Shown: in pieces, positions 59,342 to 64,000 of the stretch
Position numbering within the stretch: position 1 is the stretch's first letter
Layout: each line of letters begins with the position of its first letter
NCBI GenBank assembly: GCA_945643635.1
Contig: CALZFC010000009.1
Coordinates: 867,501-931,500, forward strand
Direction of reading: 5' to 3'
Length of the DNA stretch: 64,000 nucleotides
Source: Allodiplogaster sudhausi
Lineage: Eukaryota; Nematoda; Chromadorea; Rhabditida; Diplogasteridae
Program-made: the position numbers and the translations under genes
Notes under the pieces: generated by a model
What the model saw: only the letters and a program-made list of their open reading frames with translations
What the model was told of the DNA's origin: nothing
The model's database searches: none

Positions 59342-59362
59342 ACAATCTACTATTCATCAATA

Positions 59363-62103
59363 CTCGGGAAAAAAGCGAGCAGTTGCTACGCACTACAAGA
59401 GCAACGACTTAGCAAGGTGTTTAGCAGTTTAACCCTTACACTCTGTAACTTCTCCTGCGCGCATTCTCAACTGCTACGATGCTCATTAGGTGTGTAGCTG
59501 CTGCTAAATGAATGCAACTCGAGGTTACGCCGGTGCTAAGCAGCTGCTTAGCAGCAACTTCTGAATTGCTAAGTTGGATACTGTAGCAGCCGAGTGTCAC
59601 AACACCGGAAATACGTACTGTCAAAATTGCACCGAAATTTATCTTTCTGTTCTCCATCTGTTGTTTGTCACATATTATGTAACATTAAGTGTTTTACTGG
59701 TTAGTAATCAAGAAAACATGATAACATCAAAATTACATAGTCAACACCTATAAACTTCACAAGAAACACAAGCAGGGAAGGATATGTTATTGCAGTTAAA
59801 GCTTGAATGGAGATTGATTTAAAGATTGTATCAACTATTTCATTTCACACGAAAAATTTAGACTTCCTACGAACTGAAGATGCATAGTAGGCTATAGAAG
59901 TCACGTTAAAGGATTTTACCCACCATTTATTATACCATATCGTCATGATGATTCCGTCAATGTAACTCTCGATGTCACAGATGGGTGGATCAGTAGTCGG
60001 CGTGCGAGATTCGAGTCGAGTTGCAGTCATGATCACTTCTAAATAAAAATTCACTAAATTACATGATAGTTATACTCTAATGCAACAAATATGTAAAAGA
60101 TAACAAATGGGCTTACTCCTAACACATGCAACAACTTCCGGTGAGAGATGAAGATAGTGGCGCGCCGGACGTTCAGTTGCGGAATAGAGCGGAAGGAACT
60201 CCTTTCCACCAACAATCTGAGTTGTAAACAAGTGTAGAGGAATAATTCATTGAGATATTTAATTCAAGACCTGGATTAACACGTAGTTGGCGAAATGTCT
60301 GGTATGATAGATGAGTGCGTTGGTAGATCGATGAAATATAAGTCGAAGAAATCGACACAATGTCAACGGGATGAGCAGCACCGTCCGGAGCGGGAATGTT
60401 CACAATTAGAGGATCAGCTGACCAACTTCGAACCAAGTCAACATCGAAAATCAATGCCATTGAAGAGATCTATAATCGGAAATGAAATAAGTTTACATTA
60501 AAAAAAGCTGGATATTTCAATGAACCTGATTGTGCTGAATGTTAGTCTTCCGAGGCTTAATTCGTCTGGAATGTTCGCGATTGTTCTACAAGAATATTTA
60601 CAATGAGTCCCAATTGTTTCTCACAGCAGAATAAAGTTTTAAATAAATGGAACCTCCAGACAAGATTTCTTGGTGACATGCACGAATTGATCCACCATAT
60701 CTTCGGCATATGTCCAGAACTTGGGCAGCGACTCCTCCGTAGACTAGAATCGCGTCCACCGATGAGTTACAATTGCATCTAAAATTCATTAATAACGATC
60801 CAACTTGGCATGCTATAACATTCTATCCTTGAACGAACTGTTCGCTGACCTCTCTTCTGCGCAATTTCCGCAAACTGCTACCGTCATAATTGAGCGTCGG
60901 ATGTAGTCCTTGACTTCTAGAAAACCCTTCTTCGTCCGTTCGCCATTCACAATGAAGTATCGCTCAGCAGCTGAAATGAGAAAGAACATTAAAACGCAAA
61001 ACATTCTGCAGAAATGAATAGAATAAGTAACCTTTGCCTGACAATCCTTCATCAAAAATGAAGGATGTAGCTAGCAGTTCATCATCAGTTAAAGATCCGA
61101 CAATGCCGCTAATGTTATCTAAGCATTTGTTGTTACTTTTCCCGATTCTTAGCCTTGGAAATATACATTTAAAAAAAACACACCAGAGAGGTCAATAGAT
61201 GGAGGCATCACCGGAAATACTTGCAGATCATCAAATTCTTAAAAGTAAGTAAATGTCGTTTAAAGTATCCAAAATTAAATCACCAACCGTTAGCCGCGCC
61301 TCGCGATAATTCGTCTTCGCTCGACGTACAGCCGTCTTCGCTTTCATGAGGAGTCAGACAATCGCGATCGTTTGTTGCAGATCCTGCAAAAAGTAAAGTT
61401 ACCCGAAAGTGAAGACATCGTCGAACATATAAAATGGATAACCTGAAGCAGTATCCTCCATCCGATTTTCCTTCTTGGAGGACCATTGTAAAAATGGTTT
61501 GACATTTCGAGGGTTAACGAAAGAATCCCTGCAAAAATAAGTGTCATTCTACTTGACAAACGATGAAGTAACACTAACATAATTAATCCAGCTGCCGAAG
61601 AATTAATCTTCTCGCTAACAGAAGAAAATCACTGGAATTAGCATTTTAGCTTTGAGAACTCAACAAATATTAAAAATAAATTCATACCGTTTTAGAACGG
61701 GTCGCAGCCACAACGCACCATCAAGCAAATGCTCCCTCTTAACCGACAAACGACATATTTCTCTGAAACACTTCGTAAACTGTTGATAAAATAACACATC
61801 ATATAAGAACGGCAAACACGCATCATCGAAGAATGAGGCCTGAACATGGTTTTGAGGCTAGTCTTCAGGCGAAAAAAGACAGTTGATTTCAATTATCTTT
61901 AATGCTTATCGTTGCAGGAATTTTCGAAATTTAAAATTTTAGCAGTTCATTATGCAATGCTATGCAACAGCTTCGCAGTCCAGAAGCAGTAGACTTTAGC
62001 AGTTGAACCCTTACACTCTGTAACTGCTAATGCATTTTGTCACTGCTAACGGACAACTTTACGCATTTTTAACTGCGTAGCAACTGCGCACTTTTTTCCC
62101 GAG
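59363..62103. mobile_element. 2.74-kb TIR DNA element flanked by TA, carrying a spliced gene
   Basis: TIRs: left CTCGGGAAAAAAGCGAGCAG(TTGCTACGCA) at 59363; right end ...CTTTTTTCCCGAG at 62103; about 30 bp matching with three mismatches. TA borders both ends (59361-62 and 62104-05). Both subterminal regions are rich in AGCAGTT/AACTGCT/GCTGCTAA motifs, and a segment CCCTTACACTCTGTAAC occurs in both (59430 and 62003) in the same direction. These subterminal repeats are typical of transposase-binding sites. Superfamily not determined; TA target suggests Tc1/mariner-like or a related group. Confidence 0.82.
59845..61839 (-). CDS. Uncharacterised multi-exon gene inside the TIR element
   Basis: Unrecognised. 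The first exons join in phase: 61688-61839 (ASFFDDACLPFLYDVLFYQQ, LSVKREHLLDGALWLRPVLK), 61579-61614, 61443-61528 (MDSFVNPRNVKPFLQWSSKK), 61288-61383 (HESEDGCTSSEDELSRG), about 61186-61238 (FDDLQVFPVMPPSIDLSG), about 61032-61155 (SIVG... LTDDELLATSFIFDEGLS) and about 60826-60971 (AAERYFIVNGERTKKGFLEV, VCGNCAEERSANSS). Downstream, the exon at 60657-60780 can be read in two frames (ILVYGGVAAQVLDICRRYGG or LPKFWTYAEDMVDQFVHVTK); 60173-60478 and 59.95-60.03 kb also look coding. An acidic Ser-rich middle separates two globular parts. No DDE/DDD catalytic pattern could be identified. It may be the element's transposase or a captured gene. Confidence 0.45.
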
Positions 62104-62407
62104 TAGAAGACTCGGGTGAAAGGAACCATGTGCTACACAGTTAAAAAAGTTGTAGTTGTTATGAAAAATTCCACTTATGATTACCATCCTGTTTCTTGCA
62201 GAATCTGTCACCGTCCATGGTCAGCACTTGAGAAGAACTTCATGAGCACTGCATCGAGTGATCCGTTAGTTTTGCAGATGCTTCCTTAATCTAAAAATAT
62301 CGAAGTGTGATGTTTCCTTAAAGTTTAATGACGCCTTTTTAAGTTGTGCTAGAATTAATTTTGGAGTGTCTTGTTAAGTATGTTATGCTGCTGGTCCATA
62401 TACCCTT
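62104..62407. other. Gap before the MBOAT gene
   Basis: About 300 nt of AT-rich sequence; likely the promoter and 5' UTR of the acyltransferase. No exon is supported. Confidence 0.4.
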
Positions 62408-64000
62408 GTGTGCCGTTCAGATCGGCTGGGTGGCCTTCCCTTCTGTCCCGCGACGATTGGATGTATACGCTGCTGCTCACGTCGTCCTTCGTCATCGCCG
62501 CTGCTCAACGCTTCGCCCTCCACGGCTCTGCCCTCTATTCGTCTCTTCGGCTCCTCGGTGGCCCACTTGGCTTCTTCATTGCACTTCTCGTGCTCAAGTT
62601 CGAAATACATTTCCTTTTTTTAGGTTCATCCTCATTTTACCTGGAATATTTTTATATATTAATTTTGTAATTTGAGATGGAAGATCTTCTATTCTCTCCC
62701 TGTTGTTGTGTTCACGATTGCAGTCATCCATTGTGGGCCTCGCACGAGGTTTTTCCATGTGTTTATTACAATATTATAAAACTTTTTATCATAATTGTTT
62801 TTATCTGAATCATCGCAAAAAAAAGATGAAAGCAAGTTGTACGCGATTCGCAGGAAGATGCCGTTGATAGTCTTCAGTAGTGTGTTCTCCTATCTCATCT
62901 TCGTACGCCATCTTCACCAGCTCGTCAACCTTCCTGAGTTGGCTAGCCAAGCGAACGCGCTTCAGCTCATTCTTACTCTTCGGGTTTGGAAATCTTTTCG
63001 TGAACGGTCTTTGGTTGTATGTTTATGTTAGGAAACATTAACCATGCACTAATTACTTATTTACCAAGTTAAAAATAAATAAAATGAGGGGAATGAATTG
63101 GGATGTTTTTCTTCAGGCAATTGGCCTCGCTTACGAAGTTTCCGATGGACGCTACAACAGAGAGAATCCGGGCAAGTTGAAGCCGCTACGATACCTCGCT
63201 GAAGATCCTGGTATTCTGAGCTCCCTCAACTACTTCTACCATTTCTGCGGCCTCTTCACTGGTCTGTTATCTTTGCAATTCCTGCCCGGTCTACCCACCC
63301 AATTCTTCTTCTATTTGAGATATACTGCTGATAAGGAGCAATTATCCTTTTAGCACTGTAGCTTCGCTTTTTGAGATCCATTTTTTTCTTCCATTCCAGG
63401 ACCATACTACTCATTTCAATGCCTGGAAGATTCGTACGATGTCGAAGCGGAGCCTTTCCACACAAGGTTCACTACAAGCGATCGACCCCTTACTCTATTT
63501 GGTTTCATTTGTTCTCACTTTCCCTTGAAATGTGCGAGAATGTTGTTCCAAAAACTTTATTCCGTTCTGCAGCAGTTCAAGCTATCAACTATCTTAAGTT
63601 TCTTTCTATTAATTTTTTTTCCAATTTCCTTTGAAAAGTGTCGAAATGTTCTTGTAAACATTTATTCCATTCTATTTAGCAAGATATTCAAGCTTCATTA
63701 GGATTGATGTTGTATACCTTGGCAGTATTTTTGTACTTTTATGCTTCCCATATGTTATTTCAATAATTGGATGCAGATATGCGACTGGAAAGGGCCTCTT
63801 CCGTGAGTACCGTAGTCGTCTGATGCAACTTGCTGTCTCTACGCCAATCTTCATCTTCACCAACAGTCTCTTCCCGCTCGATGTGGGTATTTCCAATTTA
63901 AAACCATCTTTTCTACTTAAAAAACATCCTTTTACACTTTACAAAAACAGTATATATGAACGCACGCTTGACTCATTTTATTATCAGGGATTACGGTCGG
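62408..64000 (+). CDS. mboa-7: MBOAT7-like lysophosphatidylinositol acyltransferase (partial at 3' end)
   Basis: Multi-pass O-acyltransferase of the Lands cycle, ER membrane. Exons: from about 62420 (WPSLLSRDDWMYTLLLTSSF, then SALYSSLRLLGGPLGFFIAL), about 62854-62983 (SVFSYLIFVRHLHQLVNLPE, ANALQLILTLR), 63117-63261 (AIGLAYEVSDGRYNREN..., ILSSLNYFYHFCGLFTG), 63400-63466 (PYYSFQCLEDSYDVEAEPFH) and 63777-63882 (YATGKGLFREYRSRLMQLAV). The motif Y-x-FCGLFTGPYYSFQ corresponds to the YCYVGIMTGPFFRYRTY segment of human MBOAT7. Phases agree for the last three joins. The catalytic His lies beyond 64000. The start codon and the exon between 62600 and 62854 are uncertain. mboa-7 is the nearest assignment, from the overall order of conserved blocks. 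Confidence 0.8.

What the first reader, a model, noticed from the sequence alone, without database searches (positions are those of the whole stretch)
59363..62103. TA-flanked 2.74-kb TIR element carrying an unfamiliar spliced gene
Seen: matched about 30-bp ends (CTCGGGAAAAAAG...), TA on both sides, dense subterminal AGCAGTT/AACTGCT motifs, and an antisense gene of at least seven exons whose frames and phases agree over more than 300 residues but resemble no transposase I know. Tc1/mariner-type transposases are usually intron-poor and have a DDE/D triad that is not evident here. It is either a new transposase type with introns or a host gene captured by a DNA element.
Basis: partly seen in the sequence, partly recalled or inferred. 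Interest (0 to 1): 0.75.

Follow-up and report, generated by a model that had tools for sequence, protein, structure and literature searches.

The report
Internally deleted Mirage-type nematode DNA transposon
This is a shortened copy of a cut-and-paste DNA transposon of the nematode 'Mirage' group, a relative of plant CACTA elements; it looked strange only because an internal deletion removed the catalytic part of its intron-rich transposase gene.

Summary
In detail: 59363-62103 is a 2,741-bp element with inverted ends (28 of 30 matched), TA on both sides, dense subterminal AGCAGTT motifs and antisense spliced coding sequence. It is mobile: the same genome (352 Mb; a nematode by its SL1 leader) has five other long copies, 98.4-99.2% identical, and at least 25 short two-ended ones, and an 84%-identical second copy of the locus lacks the insertion. 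The longest copy is 6,056 bp; the window copy has lost 420 bp and about 2.9 kb internally. Read against it, the window holds exons 1-6 and half of exon 7 of a 16-exon transposase gene, plus remnants of a second gene. The full transposase matches Pfam DUF1258 (E 5.5e-29), which a published RNase H-fold survey equates with the Mirage group. Its YDGV and DDP aspartates and CxxC motif lie in the deleted part, so no triad could be seen. The target duplication is any 2 bp (27 of 30 copies; TA in 10), so this is not Tc1/mariner. It is neither a new transposase type nor a captured host gene. The less familiar part is the second gene: conserved in a sister family, without a database match.

The parts
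59363..62103 (.). Whole element, 2,741 bp, internally deleted copy of a family whose longest copy is 6,056 bp
59361..59362 (.). Target-site duplication TA, left
62104..62105 (.). Target-site duplication TA, right
59363..59392 (+). Left terminal inverted repeat, CTCGGGAAAAAAGC...
   Evidence: 28 of 30 match the right end
62074..62103 (-). Right terminal inverted repeat
59363..59622 (.). Left subterminal region, AGCAGTT/AACTGCT-rich; holds one copy (59420-59458) of a 39-nt direct repeat
61814..62103 (.). Right subterminal region, AGCAGTT/AACTGCT-rich; holds the other copy (61995-62033) of the 39-nt repeat, 90% identical
61688..61779 (-). Transposase gene, exon 1 of the model (possibly untranslated: no in-frame ATG seen in it; its left border is uncertain)
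61443..61528 (-). Transposase gene, exon 2 (likely start codon, MEDTASG, near its end)
61288..61383 (-). Transposase gene, exon 3
   Evidence: similar sequence in the sister element
61184..61219 (-). Transposase gene, exon 4 (36 nt; placed by comparison with the sister element)
61032..61118 (-). Transposase gene, exon 5
60850..60970 (-). Transposase gene, exon 6
60650..60778 (-). Transposase gene, exon 7, first 129 of 246 nt; cut by the deletion before the YDGV aspartate. Exons 8-16 are absent
60650..60651 (.). Joint of the internal deletion of about 2.9 kb (end of gene 2's upstream region to exon 7 of the transposase gene)
60283..60469 (-). Second gene, exon 1 (2-nt gap relative to the 6-kb copy, so out of frame here)
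60117..60216 (-). Second gene, exon 2
59936..60038 (-). Second gene, exon 3
59835..59866 (-). Second gene, first 32 nt of exon 4, cut by the 420-bp deletion
59834..59835 (.). Joint of the internal deletion of 420 bp

Best explanation
A non-autonomous, internally deleted copy of a two-gene, about 6-kb cut-and-paste transposon of the Mirage group (CACTA-Mirage-Chapaev superfamily) in a nematode genome. Shown by sequence: insertion with a 2-bp duplication of an unspecific target; a longer copy with coding capacity for a DUF1258 (Mirage, RNase H-like) transposase in 16 exons; deleted and short two-ended derivatives that multiplied. Inferred: transposase from long copies acts in trans on the shared ends, probably recognising the CTCGGG ends and the subterminal AGCAGTT repeats; the internal deletions arose by imperfect repair; the second gene encodes an accessory protein.
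For: DUF1258 equals the Mirage group and is close to Transposase_21/CACTA (PMC3985635, passages). Five other long copies and at least 25 short ones. 2-bp duplications in 27 of 30 two-ended copies. Empty site for this insertion and for a short copy. Six of six other DUF1258 loci read have inverted ends and 2-bp repeats. YDGV, DDP and CxxC shared with relatives, and an intron at the same place. Sister element with 55-66% identical transposase C-terminal exons, pN/pS 0.24-0.33.
Against: The third catalytic acid and the H(3)H motif of the superfamily were not settled. The exon structure rests on frame, phase and comparison with relatives, not on RNA. No tree with named Mirage, CACTA and Chapaev entries could be made. 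Three of 30 copies show no 2-bp repeat. The empty site of the window copy has TT where the filled site has TA.
Confidence: 0.94

Rival explanations
1. A Tc1/mariner element or MITE, as the TA flanks suggest.
For: TA on both sides of this copy and of 9 others of the 27 with a duplication.
Against: 17 of the 27 duplications are not TA; the transposase of the long copy matches DUF1258 and no Tc1/mariner family in Pfam.
Confidence: 0.01
2. A transposase type unknown until now, with introns.
For: No match in the 5.8-billion-protein collection or the PDB; the fragment kept in the window reaches no Pfam cut-off.
Against: The complete protein of the long copy scores three times the DUF1258 cut-off, and DUF1258 is published as Mirage.
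Confidence: 0.02
3. The second gene is host coding sequence captured by an ancestor of the two related element families.
For: No Pfam match; a relative at L069 6889-7170 lies outside the DUF1258 element there; two weak relatives, on C134 and C87, were not read.
Against: Two relatives outside this family lie inside CTCGGG-ended elements with 2-bp repeats, in the same order after a transposase gene and with introns at matching places. No single-copy host gene was identified.
Confidence: 0.15

Closest known systems
Mirage group of DNA transposons (Pfam DUF1258; CMC superfamily; EnSpm in Repbase)
   Same: DUF1258 transposase, nematode host, 2-bp target duplication, terminal inverted repeats
   Different: This family's ends (CTCGGGAAAAAAGC) and its second gene; I found no description of either in the papers searched, and had no Repbase or Dfam entries to compare
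CACTA/EnSpm elements
   Same: Related transposase family (Transposase_21 clusters with DUF1258); short unspecific duplications (2 bp in Spongebob, PMC4298943, passages); subterminal repeats and a second protein, as recalled for En/Spm
   Different: Ends do not begin CACTA; Transposase_21 was not reported for this protein at E up to 10 in Pfam
Sly1-1 of Neurospora (PMC4592977, passages)
   Same: CMC element with a second gene of unknown function beside the transposase gene
   Different: Fungal, 11,534 bp; its homologues in Chaetomium are divergently transcribed, whereas here both genes lie on one strand
Tc1/mariner
   Same: TA on both sides of this one copy
   Different: Target not TA-specific; DUF1258 transposase in many exons

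Membership tests
Mirage (CMC superfamily) | Transposase of the DUF1258/Mirage family | tested here: met
   E 5.5e-29, residues 106-332 of the 740-aa model; DUF1258 = Mirage in PMC3985635 (passages)
Mirage (CMC superfamily) | 2-bp target-site duplication (that this defines Mirage is recalled, from no call) | tested here: met
   27 of 30 copies; exact at three empty sites read
Mirage (CMC superfamily) | First two catalytic aspartates and C(2)C motif | tested here: met
   YDGV, DDP and GCYYC aligned with relatives in the genome; absent from the window copy by deletion
Mirage (CMC superfamily) | Third catalytic acid and H(3)H motif (named for CMC in PMC4592977) | tested here: inconclusive
   KDF here, KEG in a relative at a possible place; H(3)H not located
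Mirage (CMC superfamily) | Place inside Mirage in a transposase tree | not testable with these tools
   No named Mirage, CACTA or Chapaev sequences were at hand
CACTA proper | Ends beginning CACTA or the like (recalled) | tested here: not met
   Ends begin CTCGGG
Tc1/mariner | Insertion at TA only | tested here: not met
   17 of 27 duplications are not TA
Tc1/mariner | Tc1/mariner transposase domain | tested here: not met
   DUF1258 is the only Pfam family reported for the protein
Captured host gene (transposase gene) | Gene matches an ordinary single-copy host gene outside such elements | tested here: not met
   DUF1258 transposase family with 29 matches in this genome, several in elements with their own ends

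The most novel reading that the evidence does not exclude
The CTCGGG-ended branch of Mirage carries a conserved second protein of an undescribed family (187 aa; 47% identity between two element families; pN/pS 0.35-0.57 over three exons) that is a needed partner in transposition, for example a TnpA-like protein that binds the subterminal AGCAGTT repeats.
Probability: 0.4. Interest if true: 0.35.

Novelty: new member of a known kind. Interest (0 to 1): 0.2.

Why it matters
It shows how an apparently unknown spliced gene in a DNA element can be an ordinary deletion derivative, recognisable only once the longest copy is found. It documents a Mirage family with a 6-kb two-gene form, internally deleted copies, two short-element subfamilies and empty sites, and a second gene that could be tested as an accessory transposition protein.

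Tried and rejected
Second gene as a DNMT1 replication-foci (RFTS-like) domain: one phmmer hit, 6pzv_C, E 0.03, was no longer listed with a four-row profile, so I treat it as chance; a genome search for that domain did not complete. A first 15-exon model was replaced by a 16-exon model after comparison with the sister element. A 30-nt 'intron' with a phase break was replaced by a 20-nt exon with a 41-nt intron. Open plus-strand frames at L009 1928-2327 gave no Pfam match. A possible old relative's end in the right flank (62131-62147) is weak: score 29 against a best of 26 in 500 shuffles. Protein-collection searches with the transposase and second gene, NCBIfam for part of the transposase and PHROGs for the second gene gave nothing. 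Papers: I saw passages of PMC3985635, PMC4592977, PMC12239620, PMC5718144, PMC4455052 and PMC4298943, and only listings of the others. I found no passage giving the Mirage duplication length (paper searches); that is recalled.

Full report
What is there. The interval 59363-62103 is a discrete insertion. Its ends match as inverted repeats at 28 of 30 positions; 100,000 shuffles gave at most 20. TA stands on both sides. AGCAGTT or its complement occurs at 11.5 and 10.3 per kb in the terminal 260 and 290 bp, 0.9 per kb in the middle and 0.07 per kb in the rest of the window.

Copies. A search of the window's own genome (352 Mb, 382 contigs) gave 114 matching pieces; 40 of 68 candidates were scored, so counts are lower bounds. 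Besides the window copy there are five long relatives: C278 (6,056 bp), C7 (5,901 bp), C347 (4,641 bp, part of it inverted), C93 (4,125 bp) and C18 (second end not found). Identity between the six long copies is 98.4-99.2% over aligned parts. I looked for end pairs in 34 loci, the window copy and L009-L041; 30 have both ends near the expected places, and L012, L019, L021 and L041 do not. Twenty-five of the 30 are 726-806 bp long and fall, after orientation, into two subfamilies of 13 and 12, mean identity 94.7% and 93.5%. In the four of these compared with the long copy, both ends are shared with it.

Target sites. 27 of the 30 have a direct repeat of at least 2 bp (two of them 4 bp): by the two bases next to the element, TA 10, TT 6, AA 4, GA 2, and TG, GC, CA, AT and TC one each. 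The three without are L028 and L029, which have the same flanks, and L031, whose end is altered. TA is not a requirement.

Empty sites. The window copy's flanks, joined with one TA, match C26:1954890-1955106 across the joint at 86%. The alignment has no gap at the joint (CATCAATA/GAAGA against CATCAATTGATGA, so the empty site reads TT for TA) and runs over 1,645 columns at 84%: a diverged second copy of the locus without the element. For the short copy L014, 37 of 41 listed matches to its joined flanks span the joint in unoccupied copies of a related short element; three are L014's own locus and one stops short of the joint (40 of 88 candidates scored). The three that I read base by base are exact at the joint with a single TT.

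Why the gene looked unfamiliar. Aligned with the 6,056-bp copy, the window copy lacks 420 bp at 59834/59835 and about 2.9 kb at 60650. In the long copy the minus strand carries 16 exons with consistent phases and GT-AG borders, ending in a stop codon: 793 codons from the start of the first exon, 740 from the likely start MEDTASG. A sister element, L083, has similar sequence for exons 3-7 and for the C-terminal exons, 55-66% identical over the latter, with the same end (NHN, stop); synonymous change is saturated and pN/pS is 0.24-0.33 in the three exons compared. L083 itself lacks the catalytic middle. The window keeps exons 1-6 and 129 of 246 nt of exon 7, up to ...HQEILSGG. YDGV, DDP and GCYYC lie beyond the cut.

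Identity. [quoted passage not shown] PMC4455052 (passages) says that Repbase has reclassified Mirage and Chapaev into EnSpm. The genome has 29 DUF1258 matches, 0 in the 14 control genomes. tblastn against 20 of those loci (one of them this family) shows DG(V), D(D/Q)P and CxxC shared, a change to WDRV in one, and an intron after the DDP at the same place. Six of six further DUF1258 loci read out (L065-L070) have inverted ends, CTCTGG in five and CACAGG in one, and 2-bp repeats TG, TT, AA, AA, CA and CT. The 22-nt leader that I recall as nematode SL1 occurs 1,188 and 633 times on the two strands, 0 for the reversed control. Not settled: the third catalytic acid (KDF here, KEG in a relative) and the H(3)H motif.

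The second gene. Downstream on the same strand L009 encodes a 187-aa protein in four exons. Pfam, PHROGs and the protein collection gave no match, and a weak PDB hit did not survive a profile. Of 26 genome matches, 22 are this family's copies. Of the other four, those on C20 and C10 lie in CTCGGG-ended elements with 2-bp repeats (L083, 5,158 bp, TA; L084, 2,674 bp, AA), after transposase exons on the same strand, with introns at matching places; those on C134 and C87 were not read. A distant relative in L069 lies outside the DUF1258 element there, which counts against a strict link to such elements unless it belongs to an unread neighbour. The L009 and L083 proteins are 47% identical, with pN/pS 0.44 and 0.35 (exons 1 and 2, synonymous change saturated) and 0.57 (exon 3, dN/dS 0.40), over 31-59 codons each. 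My reading is a conserved accessory gene of this branch; its function is not shown.

Mechanism. Shown: insertion with a 2-bp duplication, multiplication of deleted and short derivatives that keep the ends, and coding capacity for a DUF1258 transposase in a longer copy. Inferred: cut-and-paste movement of deleted copies by transposase supplied in trans, recognition of subterminal repeats, and origin of the deletions by imperfect repair (at most 1 nt shared at the joints).

Verdict. Ordinary: a non-autonomous member of a known transposon group in a nematode. I score it low, with some interest left in the second gene.

Noticed in passing
window 62100-63600 and C26:1954890 (L085): The sequence right of the element encodes pieces of a host gene weakly matching MBOAT (PF03062, E 5.4e-4, below its cut-off), and the locus has an 84%-identical second copy, introns included. 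This could mean a duplicated or polyploid genome.
   Followed up: partly
L009 1928-2327, plus strand: Two plus-strand open frames between the two genes (63 and 66 codons from ATG) with no Pfam match; in the window most of this is deleted.
   Followed up: partly
L014 (C55:784961-785716): A short copy inserted into a related short element with ends CTCGGGAAAAATCGG, of which at least 37 unoccupied matches exist: a nested insertion between related families.
   Followed up: yes
L083 (C20:5003514-5008671): Sister element of 5,158 bp that has lost the catalytic middle of its transposase gene, as the window copy has, while keeping the ends and the second gene.
   Followed up: partly
window 62131-62147: A 17-nt stretch in the right flank resembles the element's own subterminal sequence in inverted orientation; barely above shuffles.
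   Followed up: partly
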